This document shows positions 39,639 through 58,037 of a DNA stretch of 64,000 bases, one piece after another. The notes beneath the pieces were generated by a model. It was not told where the DNA came from and did not search any database. It saw only the letters and a list, made by a program, of their open reading frames with translations. The translations under genes and the position numbers were made by a program. The DNA comes from Streptomyces sp. BA2 (GTDB lineage Bacteria; Actinomycetota; Actinomycetes; Streptomycetales; Streptomycetaceae). The stretch lies in contig NZ_WSRO01000002.1 of assembly GCF_009769735.1 (NCBI RefSeq), forward strand, positions 7,737,001 to 7,801,000, written 5' to 3'. Within the stretch, counting starts at the first letter, position 1. Each line of letters starts with the position of its first letter.

Positions 39639-41918
<2,280 letters not shown>

Positions 41919-41994: not shown

Positions 41995-44082
41995 TCAACG
42001 GAGCCACTCGATGCGCGTGGTGGCCGGCTCGCCCCGGGTGCCGTCCGGGGCCACCGGTGTGAGGGTCAGTTCCGTGGTCGCCTCGCCCTCGCCCCGGCGC
42101 AGCGACTTCACGTAGTACACCTCGTCGTAGATCCGCCCCAGCCACTCCTGCCCGCGGTGCACGTCGTAGTACCAGACCTGCCCGGGGTCCGCGAGATGCC
42201 AGGAGAGGAACACCTCGGCGGTCCCGCCGTCGACGTACGCGGCGTCGATCCGGAAGCCACGGGGGCGCTCCGGCGGGGGCAATGGGCGTTGTCGCAGGGC
42301 GAGTTCACCGAGGCGCAGGGGAGAGGCGGCGCGCACCGCGAGCGCCGCGATCGTACGCCCCCGGAACTCGGCGAGCGAGCGGGCCGCGGTGTGCCATCCG
42401 GCTCCGGAACCCGTTGCGCCGACCTGCCGCCAGGCGAAGGTGCCCGGATCGTCGGCGAAGAGCAGCCCCACCTCCGGCGCGCTCCCCGAGAAGGTGACCG
42501 AGAGCGTCTCCTCGCCCGTGCGCACCGCCAGCTCCGTCTTGTAGAGGCGGACCGTGGTGCCGCCCGGAACACGCAGGCAGGAGCCGCCGTCGTAGGCCCG
42601 TGTGTAGTCGAAGTCGGGCGTCTCCCGGCCCGCGGAACCCTCCGGCCCCTCCGACCAGAACTGCCACGTGGGCAGCACGTCCTGGATCGACGCGTTGTAC
42701 CAGTCCGCGTCGCTCGCGCGGCGCCCCGCCAGGAAGAAGCCACGACCGTGCCCGGTGTTGAAGCGGGTGACGAAGGGGAAAGCGCCGATCACCGAACGCT
42801 CGGTGATGTGGTGGGCCACGCCGTCCCACTTGTGGGGGTTGGCGGGGTCCGGCGCGCCGGGCTCATGAAGCTGGGTGCGGCCGGTCCGCGTGGGGTCACC
42901 CGCGGGACCCGACCAGTACTGCCGCTCGCGCTCGAAAGCGGGGCCCTGGTCCTGAGGATCCTCGTGCCCGGGATGCAGCTCCCAGACGAAGTGCGAGCCG
43001 AAGAGGGCCCAACTGGTCCTCGCGGGAGCCGAATCGGGGAAGATCAGCCGTGGGTCGTACTCCGGATCGAATCCGAACTGCTCGTTCTCCGTGCCGTGGA
43101 AGACCGCCTCGTACGGATCGCGGCCAAGGCGCAGGGCCGTGGCCCGGGAAGTCTCCACCCCCGCCTCGGTCATCCAGTAGTTGGCGAAGAAGCTGTCGGC
43201 GGCGGACTCCAGCCAGGGGGCGTTCTCGTCGTTCAGGTGGTTGAGGTAGTCGAGGCCGCCGTCCGGCCTGATCGTGTCGTACCACTGGAGATGGAAGCCC
43301 TCGGGAGCCCGGGAGCGGAGATACGTGAGCAGCTCGCGCAGCCGCTTCGCCTCGTCGGGCGGGGTCTCGGCCTCATGATTGATGAAGTAGCCGTCGAATC
43401 CAAAGTATTCGGCCATCTCGATCAATTTGTCCGCCACCGGGTACGAACCGTCCGCATGCCGTTCGAGATACGGGGCGAAATCGCCCGGCCGCGGCCAGAA
43501 CCAGCAGCCGAGACTTCTGACGCCATTGCGGTGGGCGGCGTCCGTGTAGGCGGGGTTGGGCGGATTGATCAGGCCGTGCACGATGCGGTCGGGTTCGGCG
43601 GTGGGGGATCCGTCGACCGGCAGGCCGTGCCAGGAGCCGTAGAAGTCCGAGTACTGCCAGAAGCGGAGCAGGCGGCGGGCGAAGGCGTCGTCGTACTTGC
43701 GGGCGGTGAAGAAGGCGCCGTCGTAGTCGTTGCAGAGGTTCATCACCTGGGCGCCCATGGGGAGTTGAGGGCGGGCCTGAGTGGCGGGGAACGGTGCGAT
43801 ACGCGCGGCGAGCGGCACGCGTGAGCGGAAGTACCTCGCCCAGCGGTCGGTCTGCGGACTCCAGTGCTTCAGCGCCTCGGCGTCGTACCCGTGCATGAAG
43901 GGCTGATGGCCGGGCGCGGAGGCCTGATGGCCCCGTGCGAAGGGCGGGCGGCCCGCTGCCGGGCTCACCGCGGGGCCAGTGGTGTCGGGCTCATCCGGGT
44001 GAGAGTGAAGCAGAAACAAGCCTCCGTCAATACCCGTAACAGCCCCGGAATTTGGATTCCCACGCCCCCTTGTCCCCGGCAC
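41995..44082 (-). CDS. GH85 endo-beta-N-acetylglucosaminidase (ENGase)
   Basis: Up to 695 residues from a GTG at 44082. GH85 enzymes cut between the two GlcNAc residues of the N-glycan chitobiose core by substrate-assisted catalysis. The catalytic Asn-x-Glu is N235/E237 in FDGYFINHEAE. HGYDAEALKHWSPQ (64-77) and FRSRVPLAARI mark the start of the GH85 barrel, and beta-sandwich domains follow from about 520. No Sec or Tat signal is visible from any in-frame start, so the enzyme looks cytosolic, unusual for a bacterial ENGase. The GTG touches a LacI-type operator, so the real start is probably 20-60 codons downstream (GGAGG lies at codons 20-21). Divergent from lacI. Confidence 0.8.
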   Translation of the reverse strand: MPGTRGRGNPNSGAVTGIDGGLFLLHSHPDEPDTTGPAVSPAAGRPPFARGHQASAPGHQPFMHGYDAEALKHWSPQTDRWARYFRSRVPLAARIAPFPATQARPQLPMGAQVMNLCNDYDGAFFTARKYDDAFARRLLRFWQYSDFYGSWHGLPVDGSPTAEPDRIVHGLINPPNPAYTDAAHRNGVRSLGCWFWPRPGDFAPYLERHADGSYPVADKLIEMAEYFGFDGYFINHEAETPPDEAKRLRELLTYLRSRAPEGFHLQWYDTIRPDGGLDYLNHLNDENAPWLESAADSFFANYWMTEAGVETSRATALRLGRDPYEAVFHGTENEQFGFDPEYDPRLIFPDSAPARTSWALFGSHFVWELHPGHEDPQDQGPAFERERQYWSGPAGDPTRTGRTQLHEPGAPDPANPHKWDGVAHHITERSVIGAFPFVTRFNTGHGRGFFLAGRRASDADWYNASIQDVLPTWQFWSEGPEGSAGRETPDFDYTRAYDGGSCLRVPGGTTVRLYKTELAVRTGEETLSVTFSGSAPEVGLLFADDPGTFAWRQVGATGSGAGWHTAARSLAEFRGRTIAALAVRAASPLRLGELALRQRPLPPPERPRGFRIDAAYVDGGTAEVFLSWHLADPGQVWYYDVHRGQEWLGRIYDEVYYVKSLRRGEGEATTELTLTPVAPDGTRGEPATTRIEWLR

Positions 44083-44083
44083 C

Positions 44084-44117
44084 TTTAGCGCTTTAGCCTG
44101 CTCGCCCTCAAGCGCTT
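44084..44117. promoter_or_regulatory. Pair of LacI-type operator sites
   Basis: TTTAGCGCTTTA (44084-44095) and TCAAGCGCTTTAG (around 44109-44120) share the palindromic core AGCGCT, with centres 24 bp apart. They lie between the divergent ENGase and lacI genes. The A-A-G-C-G-C-T-T shape is the usual LacI/GalR half-site pair. Confidence 0.55.
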
Positions 44118-44193
44118 TAGCTCGGCAGTCGCACCGGGCGGTCGGCGCTCAGCCGTCCGCGCTCAGCGGCAACCACGCGAGGGGAGGTCACGC

Positions 44194-45240
44194 ATGCGCC
44201 GCACCCCGGCCCGACGCCCCACCATCAAGGACATCGCCCTGCGGGCCGGTGTCTCGGAGAGCGCGGTCTCCTTCGCGCTCAACGGCCGGCCCGGAGTCTC
44301 CGAGAGCACCCGCGGCCGCGTCCGCCGGGTCGCCGAAGACCTCGGCTGGCAGCCGAGCGCCGCCGCTCGCGCCCTCTCCGGCGAGGGGTCGGGCACGGTC
44401 GGTCTCGTCCTCGCGCGCCCCGCGAAGACCCTGGGCGTCGAGTCGTTCTTCCTCCAGCTGGTCTCCGGCATCCAGGAGGTGCTCTCGCGCCGCAACCTCG
44501 GCCTGCTCTTCCAGGTCGTCGAGGACATCGACGCGGAGTGCGCGGTCTACCGCCGCTGGTGGGCCGAGCACCGCGTCGACGGCATGCTCGTCGTCGACCC
44601 GCGCGGGTCGGACCCACGCCTCGCGCTCCTCGACGAACTCGGGCTCCCCGCCGTCGTAGTGGGCACGCTGCCGGACCCGCACACCGACCACCCCGGCATC
44701 TCCAACCTCTGGGCCGACGACGCCCTCGCCATGGCCTCCATCGTCGACCACCTGTACGACCTGGGCCACCGCCGCATCGCGCACATCGCGGGCCTGCCCG
44801 ACCTCACCCACACCCGGCGGCGCATCGACTCCCTGCGGGCGGAGGCCGGGCGCCGCGGGCTGCGGCACGTGGACTCTCTCACCACGGACTACTCCGACAC
44901 CCAGGGCGCCGAGGCCACCCGGCAGGTCCTGGCGTGGGACCCGCGTCCCACGGCGATCGTCTACGACAACGACGTCCTGGCCGTCGCGGGCCTCGGTGTC
45001 GCCGCCGAGCGCGGCATGGCCGTACCGGCCGACCTGGCCATCGTCGCCTGGGACGACTCCGTCCTCACCCGCTCCACCCACCCCGCGCTCACCGCCCTCG
45101 TCCGCGACACCGCCGTCTACGGCGGGCACGCCGCCGAGCAGCTGATCGCCCTCCTCGACGGCGGCCCCGCCGTCCGCGTCAAGGACGAACTCCCGCACCT
45201 GGAGGCGCGCGGCAGCACCGCAGCCCGCGCCGCCCCCTGA
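44194..45240 (+). CDS. LacI family transcriptional regulator
   Basis: 348 residues. The helix-turn-helix is TIKDIALRAGVSESAVSFALNG (10-31), then the hinge helix around SAAARALSGEGS. The sugar-binding periplasmic-type domain follows (VGLVLARPA, VDGMLVVDPR, HLYDLGHRRIAHIAG, AIVAWDDSVLTRSTHPALT). It stands between the ENGase and the transporter operon, with operator-like palindromes on both sides. I infer that it represses the whole locus and is released by a glycan breakdown product. Confidence 0.9.
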   Translation: MRRTPARRPTIKDIALRAGVSESAVSFALNGRPGVSESTRGRVRRVAEDLGWQPSAAARALSGEGSGTVGLVLARPAKTLGVESFFLQLVSGIQEVLSRRNLGLLFQVVEDIDAECAVYRRWWAEHRVDGMLVVDPRGSDPRLALLDELGLPAVVVGTLPDPHTDHPGISNLWADDALAMASIVDHLYDLGHRRIAHIAGLPDLTHTRRRIDSLRAEAGRRGLRHVDSLTTDYSDTQGAEATRQVLAWDPRPTAIVYDNDVLAVAGLGVAAERGMAVPADLAIVAWDDSVLTRSTHPALTALVRDTAVYGGHAAEQLIALLDGGPAVRVKDELPHLEARGSTAARAAP

Positions 45241-45275
45241 CCCGCCCCGCGCACCCGTACTGTCCCCGCCCGCCC

Positions 45276-45287
45276 GACAACGTTGCC
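45276..45287. promoter_or_regulatory. Possible LacI operator before the transporter operon
   Basis: GACAACGTTGCC is symmetrical at 10 of 12 positions around AACGTT, and lies directly upstream of the ribosome site of the solute-binding protein gene. It differs in core from the AGCGCT sites, so one of the two may bind another regulator. Confidence 0.35.
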
Positions 45288-45306
45288 AACCGGAGGTATC
45301 AAAGCC

Positions 45307-46950
45307 ATGAAGTGGACCAGACTGGGCGTCACGGGCGCGGCCGCTCTCGCGCTCGCCGTCACCGCGGCAGGCTGTTCGGCGACCCCCGCCGGCCCCGGCG
45401 GCAGCGGCTCGGACTCCCTGACCGTGAACATGGGCTTCTCCGGCAACACCATTCCCCGCAACTTCAACCCCTTCTCCCTCAAGGCGAGTCAGGGCACCTT
45501 CGGCTTCCAGTACGAGCCGCTGTTCGCCTTCAACACCCTCCAGGGCGGCAAGTTCGTGCCCTGGCTCGCCACCAAGTACGCCTGGTCCGACGGCGGCAAG
45601 AAGATCACCATCGATCTCGACAAGCGCGCCAACTGGAGCGACGGCACGAAACTGACTGCCAAGGACGTCGTCTTCGCCCTGGAGTACGTCACGAAGCAGG
45701 ACCTCCCCGTGGAGTGGAAGTTCGAGTACGAGAAGGCCAAGGCGACGGACGACCACACCGTCGAGATCACCTTCGACACCCCCGGCTACGCCCGGCTGCG
45801 CAGCATCGGCTCCATCCGCCCCGTGCCGGAGAAGGTCTGGAAGGGCAAGAACGGCAAGACCTTCACCAACCCGGAACCGGTCGCCAGCGGCCCCTACACG
45901 CTGAAGCGGTACGCCGCCCAGCAGCTCACCTTCGAGGCCAGGGACGACTACTGGAAGCAGAAGGTCCCGGTGAAGACCCTCAAGGCGCCGGTGGTCGCCT
46001 CGTCGTCCGAGATAGGCAAGCTCCTCAGCGGTGAGGTCGAGTGGAGCGGCGGAGCCGTCCCCGACGTCAAGAAGTCGTACGTCGACAAGGACCCGAAGAA
46101 CCACCACGCCTGGTACCCCACCTACGGCGGCACCTACATGTTCTTCAACCACAAGAAGGCGCCCTTCAAGGACGTCCACGTCCGCAAGGGAATCTCGCTC
46201 GCCGTCAACCGCTCCGAGCTCGCCGACGTCGGCAACCCGGGCATGTTCGAGCCGCTCAACCTCACCGGGCTCGACGCCAAGACGCAGGGCAAGTGGATCG
46301 ACGCAAAGTATCAGGACGCCGCGCAGCCCAAGCCCGAACTCGCCGCGGCCGGGGCGGAGTTCGCCAAGGCCGGATACAAGAAGAAGGACGGAAAGCTCGT
46401 CGGCAAGGACGGCAAGCAGCTCAGCTTCAAGATCCTTGAGGTGACCGAGTTCGCCGACGCCATCCAGCGGGACAAGGTCCTCGCCCAGCAGCTGAAGCAG
46501 GCCGGCATCAAGGTCGAGGTCGAGCCCATGGCCAGCGCCCAGCTGGACACGGCGCGCCAGGAGGCCAAGTTCGACGTCCTGGTCGGCGGCGCCGTCTTCT
46601 ACAACACGCCGTACAACTTCTACAAGGACATGCTGCACAGCGAGAACGGCGGCATCTGGACCAACTACGGCCACTACAAGAGCGCCAAGGCCGACGGCAT
46701 CCTCAAGGAGATGGAGCGCGCCGGCGACGACGCCACCATCAAGAAGCTCTCCGCGAAGCTGGAGAAGCTGATGATCGACGAGGTGCCCGCGGCCCCGCTC
46801 ATCACGAACGGCGCCTCCACCCAGTACAACAGCAAGAACTGGACCGGCTGGCCGGACGAGAAGAACCCCTACGCCATCCCCGCGCCCTGGGCGGGCCCCA
46901 CCGACATGGTGCAGACGATCCTGTCGCTGCGCCCGGTGAAGGCGGGCTAG
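45307..46950 (+). CDS. ABC transporter solute-binding lipoprotein, peptide/oligosaccharide (SBP_bac_5) family
   Basis: 547 residues from the ATG after CGGAGG. A lipoprotein signal peptide ends at TAAGC with C23. The family 5 fold is shown by FQYEPLFAFNTLQGGKFVPWLATKYAWSD-type sequence near residue 70, then W-S-D-G-T-K-L-T-A-K-D-V-V-F and GPYTLKRY. These proteins bind di- and oligopeptides, nickel or beta-linked oligosaccharides (cellobiose, chitobiose). Given the GH85, GH29 and GH84 neighbours, an N-glycan fragment or glycopeptide ligand is likely. Confidence 0.85.
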   Translation: MKWTRLGVTGAAALALAVTAAGCSATPAGPGGSGSDSLTVNMGFSGNTIPRNFNPFSLKASQGTFGFQYEPLFAFNTLQGGKFVPWLATKYAWSDGGKKITIDLDKRANWSDGTKLTAKDVVFALEYVTKQDLPVEWKFEYEKAKATDDHTVEITFDTPGYARLRSIGSIRPVPEKVWKGKNGKTFTNPEPVASGPYTLKRYAAQQLTFEARDDYWKQKVPVKTLKAPVVASSSEIGKLLSGEVEWSGGAVPDVKKSYVDKDPKNHHAWYPTYGGTYMFFNHKKAPFKDVHVRKGISLAVNRSELADVGNPGMFEPLNLTGLDAKTQGKWIDAKYQDAAQPKPELAAAGAEFAKAGYKKKDGKLVGKDGKQLSFKILEVTEFADAIQRDKVLAQQLKQAGIKVEVEPMASAQLDTARQEAKFDVLVGGAVFYNTPYNFYKDMLHSENGGIWTNYGHYKSAKADGILKEMERAGDDATIKKLSAKLEKLMIDEVPAAPLITNGASTQYNSKNWTGWPDEKNPYAIPAPWAGPTDMVQTILSLRPVKAG

Positions 46951-48018
46951 GTGACCGGCACCGCAGCCGTGATCGCGGCCGATGAACGCGTCAAGGACCG
47001 GCCGGGCCGCCGCGTCCGGCTCGGCGCAGCCCGCTACTTCGTGCAGCGGCTCGGCTTCTACCTCGCCGCCGCCTGGATCGCCGTCACGCTCAACTTCCTG
47101 CTGCCCCGCCTTATGCCAGGCGACCCGGCCTCCGCGCTCATCGCGCAGATGCAGGGCCGCTCGGCGCTCAGCGGAGAACAGATCGCCAGCATCTACCGGC
47201 TCTTCGGCGACCCGGGCGAGCCCCTCTGGAGCCAGTACGTCACCTACCTCGGGCAGGTGGCGCACCTCGACTTCGGCCTCTCCGTGGCGTTCTTCCCGAC
47301 ACCGGTGTGGGAGGTCATCAGCGCCGGGCTGCCGTGGACGATAGGGCTCGTCGGCATCACCGCCGTCCTGTCATTCGTGATCGGCACCGCGGGCGGCATC
47401 ATGGCGGGCGGTCGCGCGGGCTCGCGTACCGACTCGGTGGCCACGCCCGGGGCGATGTTCCTCAACGCCCTTCCCACCTTCTGGATCGCCCTGCTCTTCG
47501 TCCTCGTCTTCGGCTTCCAGCTGGCGTGGCTGCCGACCGGCGGCGCGTACGACGGGGATCTGACCCCGGGCTTCTCGGCCGCTTTCATCGGCAGTGTCAT
47601 CAGCCATGCCGCGCTGCCCGCGCTCACCATCGCCCTGGGCTGGTCGGCCACGTGGTTCATCGGCATGCGGAACATGATGATCACGACGGTCTCCGAGGAC
47701 TACGTCCTCCTCGCCCGCGCCAAGGGCCTGGGCAGGACCCGCGTGATGTTCCGGTACGCGGCCCGCAACGCGATCCTGCCGAGCGTCGCGGGCTTCGCCA
47801 TCAACATCGGCAACGTGGTCGGCGGCCAGCTCCTGGTGGAGGCCGTCTTCGCGTACCCGGGCGTCGGCTATCTGCTCTACCAGTCCGTGGCCAGCGTCGA
47901 CTATCCGCTGATGCAGGCCCTGTTCCTGATGGTCTCGCTGTCGGTGCTCGCCGCGAACTTCCTCGCCGACTCCGTGTACGGCCTGATCGACCCACGCGCA
48001 AGGGAGGGCCGCGCATGA
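46951..48018 (+). CDS. ABC transporter permease (DppB/OppB type)
   Basis: 355 residues; GTG directly after the binding-protein stop. Six membrane helices, with the N-terminal YFVQRLGFYLAAAWIAVTLNF and GDPASAL typical of OppB/DppB, and the coupling helix segment LLARAKGLGRTRV that contacts the ATPases. It forms the heterodimeric channel with the next permease. Its stop overlaps that gene as ATGA. Confidence 0.88.
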   Translation: MTGTAAVIAADERVKDRPGRRVRLGAARYFVQRLGFYLAAAWIAVTLNFLLPRLMPGDPASALIAQMQGRSALSGEQIASIYRLFGDPGEPLWSQYVTYLGQVAHLDFGLSVAFFPTPVWEVISAGLPWTIGLVGITAVLSFVIGTAGGIMAGGRAGSRTDSVATPGAMFLNALPTFWIALLFVLVFGFQLAWLPTGGAYDGDLTPGFSAAFIGSVISHAALPALTIALGWSATWFIGMRNMMITTVSEDYVLLARAKGLGRTRVMFRYAARNAILPSVAGFAINIGNVVGGQLLVEAVFAYPGVGYLLYQSVASVDYPLMQALFLMVSLSVLAANFLADSVYGLIDPRAREGRA

Positions 48019-48949
48019 GGCTCAAGGTGGCACCTCGGCTGAACGTGGCACCTCGGCTGCCGGAGAACCGCAAGGTGCGGGCCGGGATCGCGATCCTGGT
48101 GCTCTTCGCGCTGTTCGCGCTGGCCGGGCCCTTCCTCGTGGAGGACGTCTTCGGGCTCTCCGCCACCGCCATCCACACCGCCGACGGCATGCAACCCCCT
48201 TCCGGTGAGCACCTGTTGGGTACGACCGCGACCGGCGAGGACGTCCTTGCCCAGCTCGTCGTGGGGAGCCGCGTCTCGCTGCTCGTGGGCCTGGTCGCCG
48301 CCGTCATCTCGACCACCCTGTCGGTGCTCGTCGGCGTCGCGGGCGGCTATCTGGGCGGAACGGCGGACGCGCTGCTCACCGCGGGCACGAACGTCGCCCT
48401 GGTCATCCCCAGCCTGCCGCTGCTCATCATCGTCGCGAGTTACGTCAAGGGGCGCGGTGGCTGGCTCACCGTGGCCCTCATCATCGGCCTGACGTCCTGG
48501 CCGTGGGGCGCACGAGGCAAACGCGCGCAGACCCTTTCGCTGCGACGGCGGGACTTCGTGACGGCCGCGGAGATGACCGGCGAGAGCCGCTGGTGGATCA
48601 TCACCCGTGAGCTGATCCCCAGCATGGCTCCGCTGATCTCGGCGAGCTTCCTGTCCGCCGTGGTCCTGTCGATGTTCGCCGACGCCGGGCTCTCCTTCAT
48701 CGGCCTCGGCAACATCAACCTCACCAGCTGGGGCTCGATGCTCTACTGGGCGCAGAACGCGTCGGCCCTCGCACGCGGCGCCTGGTGGTGGTTCATCCCG
48801 CCCGGCGCCTGCATCGCCCTCGTCGGGATCGCCGCGGGACTCATCAACTTCGGCATCGACGAGATCGCCAACCCCCGCCTGCGCAAACCGAGTCGGGCCG
48901 TACGCCGCCGGGCAGCCGCCGCGGCGCTGCGCACCCCCGAGGAGGCACG

Positions 48950-48953
<4 letters not shown>
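48015..48953 (+). CDS. ABC transporter permease (DppC/OppC type)
   Basis: 312 residues, six helices. The N-terminal extracytoplasmic loop ends in the DppC hallmark HLLGTTATGEDVLAQLVVGSR, and the coupling segment is VTAAEMTGESRWWII. ATGA overlaps at both ends show tight coupling with the first permease and with the first ATPase. Confidence 0.88.
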
Positions 48954-49961
<1,008 letters not shown>

Positions 49962-49975
<14 letters not shown>

Positions 49976-50975
49976 ACCAGTACTTGAGGCCCGCGAGGTC
50001 ACGAAACGCTTCCCGCTGCACGGCCCGGGGCAGCACGGCAAGGTCGTACGAGCCGTCGAGCCCACCACCCTCGCACTCCACCCGGGCCGCATCACCGCCC
50101 TCGTCGGCGAGAGCGGCAGCGGAAAGTCGACCCTTGCCCGGCTCCTCGCCCTCGGCTATCCGCCCAGCGAGGGCGAGATCCGCCTCGACGGCGCACCCGT
50201 GACGGCGGCGCGCTCGGCCAAGGCCAAGCGTGCCTACTACCGCCAGGTGCAGATGGTGTTCCAGGATCCCTTCTCCTCGCTCAGCCCCGTCCACCGGCTG
50301 CGCTACATCCTCGGCCGTCCGCTGCGACTGCACGGCCACGCCCGGGGCAGGGCGGAGGTGGAGAAGGCCGTCGTCGACCTCCTGGAGCGGGTCAATCTCA
50401 CCCCCGCCGACCAGTTCATCGACAAGTTCCCGCACGAACTGTCGGGCGGACAGCGCCAGCGCGTCGCCATCGCCCGCGCGCTCGCCGCCCGCCCCAAGGT
50501 GCTGCTCGGTGACGAACTCGTGTCGATGCTCGACGTCTCCATCCGCCTCGACATCCTCAACCTCCTCGGCAGGCTCCGCGACGACGAGGGCCTGGCGATC
50601 CTCTACATCACCCACGACATCGCGAGCGCACGCTACTTCGCCGACGAGATCAAGGTGCTCTACGCGGGCCAGCTCGTCGAGTCGGGTCCGGGCGACGCGA
50701 TCGTCGAGAACCCCCGACACCCCTACACCCGGCTCCTGTTGGAGTCCGCGCCCGACCCGGACCGGGGCGGACTCCTCGACGCACCGGAGGTCCTCGACGA
50801 CGAGGAGACGCTCGGTGAGCCGCCGAGCCTCGTCGACCCACCGGCCGGCTGCCGGTTCCATCCGCGCTGCCCGATCGCCAGACCGGTGTGCGCCACGGCC
50901 TTTCCGCCGCGCACGCACTTCGATGACGGGCAGTGGGCCCACTGCTGGAGCTATGACGAGGAGAATTTCAAGTGA
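49962..50975 (+). CDS. ABC transporter ATPase (DppF/OppF type)
   Basis: 337 residues from the ATG at 49962 with GAGGAGC upstream. Walker A GESGSGKST, signature LSGGQRQRVAIA and Walker B VLLGDELVSMLD, in which Leu replaces the usual Pro after the catalytic Glu. The C-terminal cysteine cluster CRFHPRCPIARPVC is present. With the preceding subunit it forms the ATPase pair of a five-component importer. The fucosidase gene starts 13 bp downstream. Confidence 0.9.
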
Positions 50976-50988
50976 AGGAGAACTGCCA

Positions 50989-52251
50989 GTGATTCAGCCG
51001 TGGTTCACGGACGCCAAGCTCGGCATCTTCCTCCACTGGGGCATCTACAGCGTGGACGGAGTGGCCGAGTCCTGGTCCTTCTTCCACGATCAGGTGCCCT
51101 ACGACCGCTACATGGCGCAGCTCGACGGCTTCACCGCCTCCGCCTACGACCCCGATGCCTGGGCCGATCTCTTCGTCCGCGCGGGCGCCCGCTACGCCGT
51201 GCTCACCGCGAAGCACCACGACGGGGTCGCCCTCTGGGACACCGCGGCGAACGACCTGTCCGTCGTCAAACGCACCCCCGCGGGCCGCGACCTCATCACC
51301 CCGTACGTCGCCGCCCTGCGCGCCCGGGGCATCAAAGTCGGCCTGTACTACTCGCACTTGGACTGGTCCCACCCCGACTACGCCACCGTGCGCCCCGGCG
51401 GGCAGGACCCGGCCGAGCGCGGCAACCGCTACTCGATGCCTCCCGTCGGCGAGGAGTCCGAGGAGAGGTGGGCGGACTTCCTCGCCTTCCACCGCGTACA
51501 GGTGCGCGAACTGCTTGAGCGCTTCGAGCCGGACCTGCTGTGGTTCGACGGCGAGTGGGAGCGCAGCCCCGAGCAGTGGCGGATGGCGGAACTCGCCGAC
51601 GAGATCCGGGCGCTGTCCCCGGGCACCGTCGTCAACGGCCGCCTCACCGGACACGGCGACTACGCAACGCCCGAGCAGGGCGTACCGATCGAACCGCCCG
51701 GCCAGTCATGGGAGTTGTGCCTCACCGTCAACGACTCCTGGGGCTATCAGCCGCAGGACACCCGCCACAAGTCACCGCGTCAGCTCGTCCGCATCTTCGT
51801 CGAGGCCGTCGGAGGCGGCGGCAATCTCCTCCTCGACGTCGGCCCGAAGGAGGACGGCACGCTGCTCCCCGAACAGACCGAGCGCCTCGAAGCGCTGGGG
51901 GAGTGGACGCGCCGACACGCCGACGCGGTCTACGGGACGGTGCGGGGTCTTCCGCACGGCCACTTCTACGGCCCTTCGACCCTCTCCGCCGACCGCCGCA
52001 CCCTGTACGTGTTCCTCTTCGACCGGCCCAACGAGTACGTGGTGCTCCGGGGCGTGCGGAACGGAGTGACGTCCGCCCGGGTGCTCGGCACGGACACCGC
52101 CGTCCGGCACGAGCGGGTCGGCGGCCTCGGCGACGTACCCGGCTGGGAGTACGTCCATCTCACCGACGACCAGCTCGATCCGCTGTGCACGGTCATCGCC
52201 CTGGAACTCGACGGCGAACTCGACCTGTACCGCGCGCACACGCGTGACTGA
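50989..52251 (+). CDS. GH29 alpha-L-fucosidase (cytosolic)
   Basis: 420 residues from the GTG at 50989 with AAGGAG 7 bp upstream. GH29 retaining fucosidase signatures: WFTDAKLGIFLHWGIYSV, YAVLTAKHHDGVALWD and the nucleophile segment DLLWFDGEW with D187. A small C-terminal beta domain follows about residue 330. There is no signal peptide, so it acts on imported material. Its place as the last gene of the importer operon, next to an ENGase, suggests it removes core alpha-1,6-fucose from GlcNAc or GlcNAc-peptide; other fucosides are possible. Confidence 0.88.
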   Translation: MIQPWFTDAKLGIFLHWGIYSVDGVAESWSFFHDQVPYDRYMAQLDGFTASAYDPDAWADLFVRAGARYAVLTAKHHDGVALWDTAANDLSVVKRTPAGRDLITPYVAALRARGIKVGLYYSHLDWSHPDYATVRPGGQDPAERGNRYSMPPVGEESEERWADFLAFHRVQVRELLERFEPDLLWFDGEWERSPEQWRMAELADEIRALSPGTVVNGRLTGHGDYATPEQGVPIEPPGQSWELCLTVNDSWGYQPQDTRHKSPRQLVRIFVEAVGGGGNLLLDVGPKEDGTLLPEQTERLEALGEWTRRHADAVYGTVRGLPHGHFYGPSTLSADRRTLYVFLFDRPNEYVVLRGVRNGVTSARVLGTDTAVRHERVGGLGDVPGWEYVHLTDDQLDPLCTVIALELDGELDLYRAHTRD

Positions 52252-52281
52252 GCGCTCCGCCGGATACGCGGTTCATTCACC

Positions 52282-52332
52282 GCGGGCCGGTGGGGGCTGA
52301 TCGCGCAGTTCCCCGCGCCCCTACGGGCGCGC
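52282..52332 (+). repeat. Dispersed Streptomyces intergenic repeat, copy 1
   Basis: Contains GCGGGCCGGT...CGCAGTTCCCCGCGCCCCT-ACGGG, a motif scattered between genes in many Streptomyces genomes. The second copy in this window is at 56492-56544. The 3' half folds as GGCGC/GCGCC around CCCCTACGGG. Confidence 0.7.
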
Positions 52333-52376
52333 CCCCTGACCCCACCCGCACCCCCATCCCGAAGTTCGGAGGCCCT

Positions 52377-54323
52377 ATGCCCCGCACCACACGCAATCTC
52401 AGACCCCGGACGGCGCTTCTCGCGCTCGCCGTCCTGGCGATCCCCCTCGCACCATCCGCGGCCGCCGCGCCTTCCGCTGCCCAGGAGGAAGCCGTGACCG
52501 GCCGGCTCCCCGTCGTGTCGCCCACCCCGCAGCACATGGCCCGTGCGGGCGACGACGTGCCGCTCGCACGCCGTGCCGAACTCGTCGTCGGCGACGCCGC
52601 CGGGGAAACCGACGAGGTGGCCCAGCGCCGCGTCACCGAGACGCTGCGCGCCCACGGGGTGCGCGACATCGACGTACGCGCCAATGCGTCGGGCCGTGCC
52701 CCGCTGACCGTGCTGCTCGGCCCGGCGACCCGGCCCGACATAGCGAAGGCGCTCGGCGGCACGAAGGTGCCCGCGCAGGCGGAGGGCTACGCCCTGCGGG
52801 CGGAGCACCGCACCGTTGCGCTGGGCGGCAAGGACGCGACCGGACAGTTCTACGCGGCGCAGACCCTCGGCCAGCTCATCTCCAAGGGCCGGATAGCCGG
52901 TGCCGAGGTCTCCGACTTCCCGTCCATGCCGCTGCGCGGAAGCATCGAAGGGTTCTACGGACCGCCCTGGACCGAGGCCGAACGCCTCGACCAGATGGAC
53001 TTCCTGGGCGACACCAAGGCCAACACCTACGTCTACGCACCCAAGGACGACCCCTACCACCGGGAGAAGTGGCGCGAGCCGTACCCGGCGGACAAGCTCA
53101 CCGAGCTCGGCAAGCTGATCGACCGCGCGAGCGCCAACCACGTGCGCTTCACGTTCGCGGTCTCGCCGGGCGGCTCCATCTGCTATTCGGACCCGGCTGA
53201 CGTCAAGGCGCTGACGGCGAAGCTCCAGGCGATGTACGACCTCGGGGTGCGGTCCTTCTCCGTCCCGCTGGACGACATCAGCTACACCAAGTGGAACTGC
53301 GAGGGCGACAAGGCCAAGTTCGGCGAGCCCGGCCGTGGACCGGCGGCGAAGGCGCAGGTAGGGCTCCTCAACACCATCCAGCGGGACTTCATCGCGCGGC
53401 ACGAGGACGCCAACCCGCTGCAGATGGTGCCCACGGAGTATGGGGACCTCACCGACACCGCGTACAAACAGACGATGCGCGCCGAGCTCGACGGCGCCGT
53501 GGAGGTGATGTGGACGGGCACGGACGTGGTCCCGCCGGAGATCACCAACTCCCAGGCGGAGAAGGCCGCGGAGCTCTTCGGGCGGAAGGTGTTCGTCTGG
53601 GACAACTACCCGGTGAACGACTTCGCACGCACGGCGGGGCGGCTGCTGCTCGCGCCCTACGACAAGCGCGAGCCCGGTCTGTCCGGTCACCTGAGCGGCA
53701 TCGTGTCCAACCCGATGAACCAGGAGGGCGCCAGCAAGCTCGCCGTCTTCACCATGAACGACTTCTCCTGGAACGACCGCGGGTACGAGCGGGCGCGGTC
53801 GGGGCGCCAGGCGGCGCTGTACCTCGCCGGAGGCGATGGACGGGTCGCCGACGCGGTGCAGACGTTCGTGGACCTCAACCACGCGGCGCCCACCTTCGGT
53901 GAGTCGAACTGGCAGCCGCAGTCCCCGGTCCTCGGCCCGAAGCTGGACGCGTTCTGGAAGCGGTACGAGAGTGACCCCGCCGGGGCGGTACGGGCGCTGC
54001 GGCCCACGGCCAGGGAGATCGAGAAGGTCCCCGCGGTGCTGCGTGCCGGGGTGCCGGATGCGCTGTTCCTCCATGACGCGAAGCAGTGGCTGGACGCGAC
54101 GGAGCTGTGGGGCGGCGCCCTGCGACACGGGCTCTCGGCGCTCTCCTGCGCCCAGGATGGGGACTCCGGCTCGGCGGCGCGGGAGCGGGCCTCGATGGAG
54201 TCGCTCGTGAAGCGGGCCCGCGCGATCACGGTTGACCCGGCTGAGCACCATCAGCTGGGGCCGGTGAAGATCGCCGACCCGTACCTGGATCAGTTCGTCA
54301 AGGGGGTCCAGGACAGGGTCTAG
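52377..54323 (+). CDS. Secreted GH84 beta-N-acetylglucosaminidase
   Basis: 648 residues from the ATG after CGGAGG. A Sec signal peptide is followed by an AxA-type site near residue 30. An N-terminal GH20b-like domain (about 45-185) precedes the GH84 barrel, which starts SIEGFYGPPWTEAERL (189-204) and carries the catalytic pair D299/D300 in SVPLDDISYTKW. A helical C-terminal part follows. GH84 enzymes remove terminal GlcNAc from glycans or proteins by substrate-assisted catalysis. It follows the fucosidase by 125 bp on the same strand and probably trims glycans outside the cell before uptake. Confidence 0.88.
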   Translation: MPRTTRNLRPRTALLALAVLAIPLAPSAAAAPSAAQEEAVTGRLPVVSPTPQHMARAGDDVPLARRAELVVGDAAGETDEVAQRRVTETLRAHGVRDIDVRANASGRAPLTVLLGPATRPDIAKALGGTKVPAQAEGYALRAEHRTVALGGKDATGQFYAAQTLGQLISKGRIAGAEVSDFPSMPLRGSIEGFYGPPWTEAERLDQMDFLGDTKANTYVYAPKDDPYHREKWREPYPADKLTELGKLIDRASANHVRFTFAVSPGGSICYSDPADVKALTAKLQAMYDLGVRSFSVPLDDISYTKWNCEGDKAKFGEPGRGPAAKAQVGLLNTIQRDFIARHEDANPLQMVPTEYGDLTDTAYKQTMRAELDGAVEVMWTGTDVVPPEITNSQAEKAAELFGRKVFVWDNYPVNDFARTAGRLLLAPYDKREPGLSGHLSGIVSNPMNQEGASKLAVFTMNDFSWNDRGYERARSGRQAALYLAGGDGRVADAVQTFVDLNHAAPTFGESNWQPQSPVLGPKLDAFWKRYESDPAGAVRALRPTAREIEKVPAVLRAGVPDALFLHDAKQWLDATELWGGALRHGLSALSCAQDGDSGSAARERASMESLVKRARAITVDPAEHHQLGPVKIADPYLDQFVKGVQDRV

Positions 54324-54645: not shown

Positions 54646-55512
54646 ATGCAGCAAGACCCCGAGGTCGCGGACAGAGTCCGCAAGGTCATCTCCGACGCCG
54701 GAGCGACCCAGCGCGAGTTCGCCCGGCGCATCGTCATGGACCCCTCCAAGCTCTCCCGCTCCCTCGGCGGCACCCGCCGCTTCACCGCCGCGGAGCTCGC
54801 CCGCATCGCCGACACCGGCGGCGTGGACGCGGGCTGGCTCCTGGGCACCCAAAGCCTGCCGGGCACCCAGCACGTGGCACCCGCGGCCCGCCGCGAACGC
54901 ACCGCCGCAGCCCCGGAAGGCGGCCGCCCCCTCCAGATCGTCCGCGAAACCGTACGGCTCGTCGCCGAGCGCGGGTTCCACGCCGTCCGCGTCGCGGACA
55001 TCGCGGAAGCCTGCGCCACGAGCACCGCCGCCATCCACTACCACTTCCCCGGCCGCGACGACCTCCTGGAGGCCGCGGTCCGCTGGTGCATGGACGAGGA
55101 CACCGCCCGCCGCGCGGCCCGCATCGCCGAAGCGGCCGACGCCGCCGACGAGCTGCGCCAGCTGATCGAGCTCCAGACCCCCCGCACCCCGCAGCAGCGC
55201 TGGCAGTGGAGCGTCTGGCTCGACCTGTGGGCGGAGGCCGCCCGCTCCACCGCCGTGGGGAGGCTGCACGCCGAGTACTACCGGCAGTGGCGCGCGACCG
55301 TCGCCGACGTCATCCGGCGCGGCGTCGACCAGGGCGTGTTCCGCCTCGTCGATCCGCAGTCCGCCGCACTCCGGCTCACCGCGCTGATCGACGGCCTCGC
55401 CACCCAGGTGCTCGCCTCCACCCCCGGCACCGACGGCACGACCGCCGACGACATGCACGAGGCGCTGCTCGTGTACGTGGACGCGACGCTCGCCGCGCCG
55501 CGCAGCGGGTAG
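54646..55512 (+). CDS. XRE-TetR fusion transcriptional regulator
   Basis: 288 residues with two DNA-binding domains. Residues about 8-65 are a lambda-repressor-like HTH (GATQREFARRIVMDPSKLSRSLGGTRRFT). Residues about 95-140 are a TetR HTH (VRLVAERGFHAVRVADIAEACATSTAAIHYHF), followed by a helical TetR ligand-binding domain. This double-HTH type is found beside carnitine and betaine genes in actinomycetes. It probably controls the downstream operon in response to carnitine or a CoA intermediate. Confidence 0.85.
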   Translation: MQQDPEVADRVRKVISDAGATQREFARRIVMDPSKLSRSLGGTRRFTAAELARIADTGGVDAGWLLGTQSLPGTQHVAPAARRERTAAAPEGGRPLQIVRETVRLVAERGFHAVRVADIAEACATSTAAIHYHFPGRDDLLEAAVRWCMDEDTARRAARIAEAADAADELRQLIELQTPRTPQQRWQWSVWLDLWAEAARSTAVGRLHAEYYRQWRATVADVIRRGVDQGVFRLVDPQSAALRLTALIDGLATQVLASTPGTDGTTADDMHEALLVYVDATLAAPRSG

Positions 55513-55572
55513 ACGCCCCGCGACGCCTCTCCGCAAGAACACCAACACCCCACCCCTGAGGGAGAGTTCACC

Positions 55573-56463
55573 ATGCCCGTGAATCAAGACGTCATCATCA
55601 CCGCCGCCCTCACCGGCGCGGGCGACACCGTACGCAAGAGTCCCCACGTCCCCGTCACCCCCGAGCAGATAGCCACCTCCGCCGCGGAGGCCGCCGAGGC
55701 AGGCGCCGCCGTCGTGCACATCCACGTACGCGACCCGGAGACCGGCGACCCGTCGCGCGACCCCCGCCTGTACCGGGAGGTCGTCGAGCGCATCAAGGAG
55801 ACCGGCACCGACGTCGTCATCAACCTCACCGCGGGCATGGGCGGCGACCTCGTCATCGACCCGGTCGAGCCGCTGAAGGAGCTCGGCGAGCTGCCCGGCA
55901 CCGACCTCGTCGGCGGCCTGGACCGGCTTCCGCACGTCGAGGACCTGCTCCCGGACATCTGCACCCTGGACTGCGGCTCCCTCAACTTCGGCGACAACCT
56001 CTACATCTCCACCCCCGACATGCTCCGCCAGGGCGCCAAGCGCATCCAGGAGCTTGGCGTACGGCCCGAGTTGGAGATCTTCGACACCGGACAGCTCTGG
56101 TTCGCCAAGCAGCTCCTCGCGGAAGGGCTGCTCGACAACCCCACCGTCTTCCAGCTCTGCATGGGCATCCCGTGGGGCGCCCCCGCAGACCCGGGCGTCC
56201 TCCAGTCCATGGTCAACATGCTCCCCGAGGGCGCCCAGTGGGCCAGCTTCGCGCTCGGCCGCATGCAGATGCCGTGGGTCGCCCAGTCCATCCTGCTCGG
56301 CGGCCAGGTCCGCGTCGGCCTCGAGGACAACCTCTACCTCGGCAAGGGCAACAAGGTCTCCAACGCCCAACTCGTCGAGCGTGCCGTGCAGATCACCGAG
56401 AACCTCGGCTCGCGCGTCGCCACGCCGGACGAGGCCCGCCAGAAGCTCGGCCTCAAGCGATAG
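55573..56463 (+). CDS. Beta-keto acid cleavage enzyme (BKACE), probably dehydrocarnitine-specific
   Basis: 296 residues; GGGAGAG precedes the ATG. BKACE enzymes (formerly DUF849) use zinc and acetyl-CoA to cleave beta-keto acids. Metal and substrate motifs are visible: [17 protein letters not shown] (His-x-His) and [11 protein letters not shown], and later [10 protein letters not shown]. Next to L-carnitine dehydrogenase and a thioesterase, the likely reaction is dehydrocarnitine plus acetyl-CoA to betainyl-CoA and acetoacetate. Other BKACE members cleave 3-keto-5-aminohexanoate, so the specificity rests on context. Confidence 0.85.
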
Positions 56464-56491
56464 CGCTTCGCTGGATTGTGCGGCACTTGGC

Positions 56492-56544
56492 TGCGGGCCG
56501 GTCGTGGCTGGTCGCGCAGTTCCCCGCGCCCCTACGGGGCACGC
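56492..56544 (+). repeat. Dispersed Streptomyces intergenic repeat, copy 2
   Basis: Same unit as at 52282-52332 (TGCGGGCCGGT...CGCAGTTCCCCGCGCCCCT-ACGGGGC), here in the 114-bp gap between the BKACE and carnitine dehydrogenase genes. Confidence 0.7.
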
Positions 56545-56577
56545 ACGCCCCCCGCAGCATGGAGAGGACCCCCCATC

Positions 56578-57549
56578 ATGACCACTACCACCCCTGAAGA
56601 AGTACGCCGCGTCGCCTGCGTCGGCGCCGGTGTCATCGGCGGCGGCTGGGTCGCCCACTACCTCGCCCGCGGCTACGACGTCACCGCCTGGGACCCCGCC
56701 CCCGACGCCGAGCAGAAGCTGCGCCGCCTGGTCGACGCGGCCTGGCCCGCGCTGACGCAGCTCGGCCTCGCCGAAGGCGCGTCGCCGGAGCGCCTCACGG
56801 TCACCCCCACCCTCGAAGAGGCCGTGGCCGACGCCCAGTTCGTGCAGGAGAGCGCCCCGGAGGAGCTGGAGCTGAAGCGCGATCTGCTGGCCAAGCTGGA
56901 CGCCGCCGCGCCCGCCGGAGTCGTCATCGCCTCCTCCACCTCCGGCTACCCGATGACCGACATGCAGACCGAGGCCACCGACCCCGGGCGCCTCGTCGTC
57001 GGCCACCCCTTCAACCCGCCCTACCTCATCCCGCTCGTGGAGGTCGTCGGCGGCGACAAGACGGCCCCCCACGCGGTCACTTGGGCGTCCCGCTTCTACG
57101 AGGTCGCGGGCAAGTCCGTGATCACCATGGCGAGCGAGGTGCCCGGCTTCATAGCCAACCGCCTCCAGGAAGCGCTCTGGCGCGAGGCCCTGCACATGGT
57201 CGCCAACGGCGAGGCCACGGTGAAGGAGATCGACGACTCGATCACCGAAGGCCCCGGCCTGCGCTGGGCGTTCATGGGCCCCATGCTCACCTTCGCGCTC
57301 GCGGGCGGCGAGGGCGGCATGGCCCACATGCTCGACCACTTCGGCCCGTCCCTGAAGTCGCCGTGGACGCGGCTCGAAGCACCCGAGCTGGACAAGGAGT
57401 TGTATGACGCCGTGGTCGCCGGATGCGATGACGCGGCGGACGGCCGGACCATCGCCGACCTGGTCGCCGAGCGTGACCAGGGAGTCATCGACGTGCTGCG
57501 GGCGACGGGACGCCTGCCGCAGCAGCGCACGAAGGAGGACACCAAGTGA
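56578..57549 (+). CDS. L-carnitine 3-dehydrogenase
   Basis: 323 residues. The 3-hydroxyacyl-CoA-dehydrogenase-like Rossmann domain has CVGAGVIGGGWVAHYLARGYDV at 12-33, and ESAPEELELKRDL, ASSTSGYPMTDMQ and GHPFNPPYLIPLVEVVGG mark the active site and cofactor cleft. The helical domain follows GFIANRLQEALWREALHMV. The family includes L-carnitine and lambda-crystallin-like dehydrogenases; the neighbouring BKACE and thioesterase favour carnitine (to 3-dehydrocarnitine). Its stop overlaps the thioesterase GTG by 4 bp. Confidence 0.85.
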   Translation: MTTTTPEEVRRVACVGAGVIGGGWVAHYLARGYDVTAWDPAPDAEQKLRRLVDAAWPALTQLGLAEGASPERLTVTPTLEEAVADAQFVQESAPEELELKRDLLAKLDAAAPAGVVIASSTSGYPMTDMQTEATDPGRLVVGHPFNPPYLIPLVEVVGGDKTAPHAVTWASRFYEVAGKSVITMASEVPGFIANRLQEALWREALHMVANGEATVKEIDDSITEGPGLRWAFMGPMLTFALAGGEGGMAHMLDHFGPSLKSPWTRLEAPELDKELYDAVVAGCDDAADGRTIADLVAERDQGVIDVLRATGRLPQQRTKEDTK

Positions 57550-58037
57550 CCGCGCCCCTGCCCGTTCTGCACCGGACCGTACGGCCCGAGTGGATCGACT
57601 ACAACGGCCACATGAGCGAGGCGTTCTACGTCCTCGTCTTCGGCTACGCCACCGACGCCATGATGATCGAGACCGGCCTGCACGCGGGATACCGCGAGTC
57701 CACCGGCTGCTCGCTCTACACGGTCGAGGCGCACATCCGCTATCTCGACGACGTCGCGGACGGCGTCCACCTCGCGGTCCGCACCCGCATCCTGGGCGCG
57801 GACGCCAAGAAGGCGCGCTTCACCCACGAGCTGTACGTCGTCGAGGAGCCCGAAGCGGAGATCGCCCCGGAGGCCACCCCCGTGGCAACCACCGAACTCC
57901 TCGCCATCCACGTCGACCAGAACGCGGGCCGCGCGACCCCCTTCCCGGACACGATCCGCGACCACCTGACGGCCCTGGCGGAACCGGCCCCTGAGTGGGC
58001 GGGCCGCTCCATCACGGAGGTACCCCGCAAGCCCTGA
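57546..58037 (+). CDS. Acyl-CoA thioesterase, probably betainyl-CoA-specific
   Basis: 163 residues with a hotdog fold: EWIDYNGHMSEAFYVLVFGYATDAM contains the Asp and NGHM motif of 4-hydroxybenzoyl-CoA-type thioesterases. As the last gene of the carnitine operon it should release glycine betaine from betainyl-CoA, making an osmoprotectant. The GTGA overlap with the dehydrogenase supports co-translation. Substrate is inferred from context only. Confidence 0.8.
   Translation: MTAPLPVLHRTVRPEWIDYNGHMSEAFYVLVFGYATDAMMIETGLHAGYRESTGCSLYTVEAHIRYLDDVADGVHLAVRTRILGADAKKARFTHELYVVEEPEAEIAPEATPVATTELLAIHVDQNAGRATPFPDTIRDHLTALAEPAPEWAGRSITEVPRKP

What the first reader, a model, noticed from the sequence alone, without database searches (positions are those of the whole stretch)
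41995..54323. Candidate N-glycan/glycopeptide salvage locus: GH85 + LacI + Dpp-type importer + GH29 + GH84
Seen: a GH85 ENGase, a divergent LacI regulator, a five-gene peptide/oligosaccharide-family ABC importer, a cytosolic GH29 fucosidase and a secreted GH84 hexosaminidase lie contiguously, mostly with overlapping genes. Known: GH85 splits the chitobiose core of N-glycans, GH29 removes fucose and GH84 removes terminal GlcNAc. Inference: the cell trims glycans outside with GH84, imports a GlcNAc- or fucosyl-GlcNAc-bearing fragment, perhaps a glycopeptide because the binding protein is of the peptide family, and finishes inside with ENGase and fucosidase. I know of no described Streptomyces system with this make-up; the intracellular ENGase is the strangest part.
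Basis: partly seen in the sequence, partly recalled or inferred. Interest (0 to 1): 0.85.

Follow-up and report, generated by a model that had tools for sequence, protein, structure and literature searches.

The report
Import-first N-glycan utilisation locus in Streptomyces
A soil bacterium appears to take up the sugar trees of glycoproteins before cutting their base, using a glycan-cutting enzyme that has lost its export signal and sits beside a sugar importer, whereas bacteria commonly make this cut outside.

Summary
The genes are real and correctly named: GH85, LacI, a five-gene SBP_bac_5 importer, GH29 and GH84 lie contiguously at 41995-54323. The same gene order recurs in seven other Streptomyces genomes (complete in three, up to the edge of the DNA held in four). 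It belongs to N-glycan catabolism: in five of the seven a GH5_18 beta-mannosidase (79-81% identical to the window genome's own) lies between LacI and GH85, in one with GH38. The window genome has a second, classical-type N-glycan locus whose LacI is 70% identical and whose tandem operators nearly match. In the classical loci sampled, GH85 carries a Tat-like signal; the eight GH85s of this locus carry none and form one clade nested among signal-bearing relatives, so the signal was probably lost once, in the lineage with this importer and a cytosolic fucosidase. Best explanation: uncut N-glycan core (GlcNAc2-ended, with or without fucose) is imported and split in the cytosol. A new variant of a known kind; activity, substrate and induction are untested.

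The parts
41995..43968 (-). GH85 endo-beta-N-acetylglucosaminidase without signal peptide (GTG start preferred; frame open to 44082)
   Evidence: PF03644 and GH85_C; Endo-A-type N-x-E kept; no N-terminal hydrophobic signal in the 8 locus-A members; one clade 100/100
44083..44096 (+). LacI-type operator 1, CTTTAGCGCTTTAG
   Evidence: Found in 8 of 8 locus-A regions, one base different in L036 and in L037; genome-wide scan
44107..44120 (+). LacI-type operator 2, CTCAAGCGCTTTAG
   Evidence: Found in 8 of 8, one base different in L037; genome-wide scan
44194..45240 (+). LacI-family regulator (LacI-A)
   Evidence: Pfam; 70% identical to LacI-B of the genome's second N-glycan locus
45307..46950 (+). 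Solute-binding lipoprotein, SBP_bac_5, oligosaccharide-binding type (cluster C-VI-like)
46951..48018 (+). ABC permease 1
   Evidence: PF00528
48015..48953 (+). ABC permease 2
   Evidence: PF00528; start
48950..49975 (+). ABC ATPase 1 (OppD-like)
   Evidence: ABC_tran and oligo_HPY
49962..50975 (+). ABC ATPase 2 (OppF-like)
   Evidence: ABC_tran and oligo_HPY
50989..52251 (+). GH29 alpha-L-fucosidase, predicted cytosolic (starts at the catalytic domain)
   Evidence: PF01120; 27% identical over 340 columns to the secreted-looking GH29 of locus B
52377..54323 (+). GH84 beta-N-acetylglucosaminidase with GH20b domain and signal peptide (by eye)
   Evidence: PF07555; closest solved NagJ, Asp-Asp pair kept; N-terminus

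Best explanation
This is an import-first N-glycan core utilisation locus. Secreted enzymes (GH84 here; GH20 and another GH29 at the second locus) trim the glycan outside. The Opp-type importer with an oligosaccharide-type binding protein takes up a core oligosaccharide that still carries the GlcNAc-beta1,4-GlcNAc (chitobiose) end, with or without core fucose. In the cytosol GH85 cuts between the two GlcNAcs, GH29 removes fucose from the reducing-end GlcNAc, and GH38 and GH5_18 (same locus in some relatives, second locus here) take the mannoses. LacI represses both divergent arms through a tandem operator and is released by an N-glycan-derived sugar. Shown by sequence: gene content, lack of an export signal on GH85 and GH29, homology, conserved operators, co-conservation. 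Inferred: activities, direction of flux, substrate, regulation. Of the two forms of substrate, free chitobiose-ended glycan is slightly favoured over Asn- or peptide-linked glycan.
For: Gene content. GH5_18 lies between LacI and GH85 in L033 (same genome as L053), L035, L036, L037 and L054, and GH38 as well in L037; the L033 gene matches ScGH5_18 structures at E 1e-224 and BlGH5_18 at 5e-126. The genome's second locus holds GH20, GH29, LacI-B, CUT1 importer, GH5_18 and GH38, with GH92 about 7 kb upstream, but no GH85, and the genome has a single GH85. LacI-A and LacI-B are 70% identical with alike tandem operators; exact sites of the joint pattern lie at 5 places in 10 Mb, 4 of them at these two loci. 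GH85 without signal in 8 of 8 locus-A genomes, against a Tat-like signal in 28 of the 30 best-scoring GH85 loci of the genus (2 not assessable) and in L034, L040, L051, L052, L055, L058; one clade. Binding protein closest to VhCBP, TM1223 and TM1226, with aromatic-x-Asp and Trp clamp residues. In 392 genomes the binding protein at 67% or more and the complete locus coincide, 4 of 4.
Confidence: 0.68

Rival explanations
1. Same locus, but the imported substrate is an Asn- or peptide-linked core glycan (glycoamino acid or short glycopeptide); the ENGase then releases the glycan inside.
For: ENGases act on Asn-linked glycan; the importer is of the Opp/Dpp architecture; in the related VhCBP the reducing-end units extend beyond the groove (passages of PMC8449061), so an aglycone might be tolerated.
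Against: Closest binding proteins by sequence and fold bind oligosaccharides; no Asparaginase_2 family gene in the genome to finish GlcNAc-Asn (the control search rang in 5 of 14 genomes); no peptidase among the nine genes.
Confidence: 0.3
2. GH85 reaches the outside without a recognisable signal, so the pathway is the classical cut-first one with an unusual importer.
For: An extracellular enzyme without a known signal has been proposed in pneumococcal N-glycan use (SpGH92; passage of PMC5215778).
Against: Close relatives carry Tat-like signals, and loss coincides with the importer lineage; the neighbouring GH29 also lacks a signal, and GH5_18, which joins the locus, starts without one by eye.
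Confidence: 0.1
3. The importer serves chitooligosaccharides or another GlcNAc or mannoside oligomer, and GH85, GH29 and GH84 are neighbours in a general GlcNAc-scavenging unit.
For: The nearest solved binding proteins are chitin-oligosaccharide binders.
Against: Characterised GH85 enzymes act only on N-glycans (review passage, PMC10154615); GH5_18 and GH38 join the locus in relatives; the LacI is a paralogue of the N-glycan locus regulator.
Confidence: 0.12

Closest known systems
Classical-type Streptomyces N-glycan locus (my label 'locus B': LacI-B, CUT1 importer, GH5_18, Tat-like-signal GH85, GH38)
   Same: Paralogous LacI with alike tandem operators; a GH85; GH5_18 and GH38 join locus A in relatives
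   Different: CUT1 (SBP_bac_1) importer against SBP_bac_5/Opp importer; GH85 with signal against none; a GH29 without signal is added in locus A
Streptococcus pneumoniae EndoD/NgtS-P1-P2 system
   Same: GH85 plus ABC import of N-glycan; exo-trimming outside (passages, PMC5215778)
   Different: EndoD is cell-wall anchored and NgtS binds the cut product with its reducing-end GlcNAc buried; here GH85 has no export signal and the binding protein belongs to another family
Cutibacterium acnes N-glycan-processing locus 1
   Same: Predicted cytoplasmic GH38 and GH5_18, proposed import of Man3-GlcNAc2, GH29 without signal elsewhere (passages, PMC6160142)
   Different: The triad GH38/GH5_18/GH20 is held sufficient to take the core apart; no cytosolic ENGase is proposed in the passages seen
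Lactobacillus casei alf-2 pathway for Fuc-alpha1,6-GlcNAc-Asn
   Same: Import followed by intracellular alpha-fucosidase on a core-fucose fragment (passages, PMC6960285)
   Different: MFS permease and glycosylasparaginase; no ENGase named in the cluster
Eukaryotic cytosolic ENGase and Man2c1 free-oligosaccharide pathway
   Same: Cytosolic ENGase, then mannosidase, on chitobiose-ended free glycans (start of abstract only, PMC2909182, listing)
   Different: Here the glycan would come from outside by ABC import; analogy only

Membership tests
GH85 ENGase | Family domain over curated cut-off | tested here: met
   200.9 bits against 22.2
GH85 ENGase | Catalytic Asn-x-Glu as in Endo-A | tested here: met
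   FINHE aligned to FINQE of the Endo-A structures; N171A inactive (one passage of PMC2646837); role of the Glu recalled
GH85 ENGase | Hydrolysis of GlcNAc-beta1,4-GlcNAc of N-glycans | not testable with these tools
   Needs assay
Classical-type Streptomyces N-glycan locus (B) | LacI of the same family with tandem operator | tested here: met
Classical-type Streptomyces N-glycan locus (B) | CUT1 importer (SBP_bac_1) | tested here: not met
   SBP_bac_5 plus two ATPases instead
Classical-type Streptomyces N-glycan locus (B) | Secreted GH85 | tested here: not met
   No signal in the window GH85
Classical-type Streptomyces N-glycan locus (B) | GH5_18 and GH38 in the cluster | tested here: not met
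   Absent from the window cluster, present about 0.5 Mb away; GH5_18 inside in five of seven relatives, GH38 in one
Cluster C-VI oligosaccharide-binding proteins | Closest to VhCBP/TM1223/TM1226 by sequence and fold | tested here: met
Cluster C-VI oligosaccharide-binding proteins | Trp363, Asp365, Trp513, Asn204 conserved | tested here: inconclusive
   By my counting on the alignment: Asp365 is Asp384, Trp513 is Trp528, Trp363 is Phe382, Asn204 is Ser; across 21 aligned relatives position 382 is aromatic in 21 and 384 Asp in 20
Opp/Dpp peptide importers | SBP_bac_5 plus two permeases plus two oligo_HPY ATPases | tested here: met
Opp/Dpp peptide importers | Binds peptides | not testable with these tools
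   Nearest solved relatives bind oligosaccharides
L. casei alf-2 type glycoamino-acid pathway | Glycosylasparaginase present | tested here: not met
   No PF01112 match in the genome; control rang in 5 of 14

The most novel reading that the evidence does not exclude
Bacteria have an import-first N-glycan pathway: in one Streptomyces lineage the ENGase lost its Tat signal when the CUT1 importer (kind known to bury a single reducing-end GlcNAc) was joined by a C-VI-type Opp importer that accepts uncut chitobiose-ended, core-fucosylated (possibly Asn-linked) glycan, so that the cut made outside by other bacteria is made in the cytosol.
Probability: 0.5. Interest if true: 0.72.

Novelty: new variant of a known kind. 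Interest (0 to 1): 0.58.

Why it matters
A 2023 review places prokaryotic GH18, GH85 and PNGase enzymes commonly outside the cell (passage of PMC10154615). A clade in which the ENGase was moved inside together with a different importer would show that the order of cutting and import is evolvable, would give a private way to use glycans that competitors cannot share, and would supply a binding protein and a cytosolic GH85/GH29 pair for core-fucosylated glycans. It also gives a clean testable pair: two paralogous loci in one genome, one of a type that is cut-first in its relatives, one import-first.

Tried and rejected
Peptide or nickel importer reading: NCBIfam names the binding protein's nearest models nickel or oligopeptide binders, but all far below cut-off; sequence and fold comparison favour oligosaccharide binders.

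Plasmid-borne copies of the binding protein: no match at E 1e-60. Orthologues across the class at E 1e-90: 1 of 394, the window's genome itself. The contexts of the Nonomuraea, Kribbella and Streptacidiphilus relatives were not read. Further operator sites: the fifth exact site (C2:327946) is about 300 bases from an ORF that I did not identify; one-mismatch sites do not exceed background. PNGase F family search: uninformative, since the control rang nowhere. Paper searches for a Streptomyces N-glycan system or a bacterial cytosolic GH85: none seen, judged on titles and starts of abstracts of capped listings (for example 20 of 86 papers, 15 of 60, 15 of 53). One listed Streptomyces paper that names GH85, GH92 and N-glycans (PMC11475409) was looked into: a table of CAZyme families and a remark, no locus. 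Subscription papers are missing from that library; I recall a Bifidobacterium longum high-mannose study (Nature Chemical Biology) that I could not read here.

Not examined or dropped: L053 was left out of both trees as the same genome as L033. The GH85 tree used 8 of the 30 best-scoring loci (L063-L070, which repeat genomes of L002-L016). L017 and L021 N-termini could not be assessed, L041's is partly masked. In the LacI tree, hits under 250 residues or over E 1e-25 were dropped. The binding-protein alignment used 20 of the 90 homologues. The GH85s of G036, G030 and G321 were not located. L039 and L057 GH85s also lack a signal but are distant. Whether GH92 of the second locus is secreted was not seen (its start lies outside the stretch fetched).
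Full report
Observation. GH85 runs on the minus strand; LacI, the binding protein, two permeases, two ATPases, GH29 and GH84 run on the plus strand. Likely starts: GH85 GTG 43968, binding protein 45307, GH29 50989, GH84 52377. GH85 keeps the Asn-x-Glu of Endo-A, GH84 the Asp-Asp pair of NagJ. By eye, GH84 has a signal peptide and the binding protein a lipobox; GH85 and GH29 have neither. dN/dS is 0.05-0.29 for nine genes against L032 and eight against L056, so these are maintained genes.

Conservation. One genome-contig scan gave 13 loci. tblastn showed the same gene order in L032, L033, L035, L036 and L037 as far as the DNA reaches, while L034 holds only GH85 and GH84. In 392 genomes of the genus the binding protein occurs at 67% or more in 4: the window's, G280, G161 and G308; G008 has one at 40%. 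Each of the four holds the whole block with GH84 (window; L056+L083, L053+L081, L054+L082). The GH29 at 82% or more is in 7 of 392 (one a fragment at a contig end), with the next at 67%. Of these, G123 shows in its 20-kb stretch only terpene synthase, GH29, a GH84 fragment and TetR of the set and has no GH85, that is, GH85, LacI and importer are missing together. G103 has the GH29 beside GH92-, GH20- and CUT1-like genes. So the GH29 alone is not tied to the block; the importer is, as far as sampled.

What pathway. L033, L035, L036, L037 and L054 carry one gene between LacI and GH85. Pfam does not name it, but the L033 copy matches ScGH5_18 structures at E 1e-224 and bifidobacterial BlGH5_18 at 5e-126. 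GH5_18 is a beta-mannosidase of the N-glycan core, as described for C. acnes (passages of PMC6160142). L037 adds GH38. The window, L032 and L056 lack both inside the locus. The window genome has its GH5_18 about 0.5 Mb away (81% identical to that of L033), in a locus with GH20, a GH29 with Tat-like start, a LacI 70% identical to the window's, a CUT1 importer and GH38, and with GH92 about 7 kb upstream across unrelated-looking genes. That second locus has no GH85; the genome's only GH85 is the one in the window.

The classical-type locus. PF03644 occurs in 155 of 392 Streptomyces genomes. By E-value I split them into a majority class and lower-scoring classes, the window's among the latter; the labels are mine. 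In 8 of 8 sampled majority-class loci (taken from the best-scoring 30, not at random) GH85 sits between GH5_18 and GH38 behind a CUT1 importer and the LacI-B regulator, and is about 30% identical to the window's. Of the 30 best-scoring loci, 28 show a Tat-like hydrophobic N-terminus and 2 could not be assessed. Nearer relatives outside the block (L034, L051, L055, L058; more distantly L040, L052) also have one. The eight members inside the block have none; in L033 an in-frame stop lies 12 codons upstream of the conserved start region. A tree of 33 GH85s places these eight in one clade, 100/100, nested among signal-bearing relatives (sets with L034 100/99 and with L051 99/99; the fork that puts L055 and L058 nearest is 94/93). 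The simplest history is one loss of the export signal, in the lineage that has the Opp-type importer and the GH29 without signal. Two distant GH85s (L039 Bacillus, L057) also lack a signal, so the state is not unique, and the GH85s of G036, G030 and G321 were not located.

Regulation. Upstream of LacI all eight loci have two 14-base sites, CTTTAGCGCTTTAG (one base different in L036 and L037) and CTCAAGCGCTTTAG (one base different in L037), 24-25 bases apart. Locus B has the same arrangement in the 10 regions read, with a half-site change (CTAATGCGC), L065 and L069 with a variant site. The exact joint pattern occurs at five places in the 10-Mb genome, four of them these two loci. With one mismatch allowed the pattern is rarer than its reversed control (20 against 92), and in an earlier scan 3 sites stood against 5 in the control, so only position and conservation carry weight. 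The two LacIs fall into separate groups of one family, the dividing branch at 73/96. Shared effector or cross-talk is inference.

Substrate. Free chitobiose-ended glycan or Asn-linked glycan both fit the enzymes. No Asparaginase_2 gene was found, nor a PNGase A family gene (control rang in 1 of 14); the PNGase F test was uninformative. I favour free glycan slightly, since its products could then be used with the enzymes seen. The source of such glycan (decaying plant, fungal or insect matter) is conjecture.

Verdict. A real, conserved locus of N-glycan catabolism with conserved operators, a sister of the classical-type Streptomyces one, with importer family and enzyme location changed together. 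New variant of a known kind. Eight paper searches, judged on capped listings, showed no described bacterial system with a cytosolic GH85 behind an importer; the library lacks most subscription journals.

Noticed in passing
G000:C2:8272000-8294840 (L046, L047): Second N-glycan locus of the same genome: GH92, then about 7 kb on GH20, GH29, LacI-B, CUT1 importer, GH5_18 and GH38, lacking the GH85 that the 8 sampled relatives have between GH5_18 and GH38.
   Followed up: yes
window 43965-43994 (-): A promoter-like pair (TTGACG, 17 bases, CACTCT; read by eye) ends 7 bases before an ATG that opens a 9-codon frame whose stop overlaps the GH85 GTG start; in L032 the same ATG is in frame with GH85, suggesting a leaderless start there.
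   Followed up: partly
window 39639-41876 (-): Terpene synthase with two Terpene_syn_C_2 stretches (geosmin-synthase-like, name recalled) beside GH85, also neighbouring the locus in L032, L056 and its remnant in L071.
   Followed up: no
window 54646-58037 (+): TetR-family regulator with an extra N-terminal HTH_31 domain, followed by BKACE, 3-hydroxyacyl-CoA dehydrogenase and thioesterase; the regulator flanks the locus elsewhere too, on the GH85 side in L033, L035, L036, L037 and L054, that is, with the block inverted.
   Followed up: no
L039 6102-12619: Bacillus niameyensis GH85 without signal peptide beside GH1 and two ROK-family genes, with a second GH85 carrying a FIMAH domain nearby: a possible independent cytosolic ENGase.
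   Followed up: partly
L071 (G123): Remnant of the locus: GH29 and a GH84 fragment between the usual flanks, GH85, LacI and importer not found in the stretch.
   Followed up: partly
L103 10908-11228 (G036): Short GH85-like stretch (110 residues, 42%) between GH5_18 and GH38 in a classical-type locus.
   Followed up: no
L105 (G008): A 40% relative of the binding protein with its own permeases and an ATPase, cut by the contig end; none of my glycosidase queries matched on the 8-kb contig.
   Followed up: no
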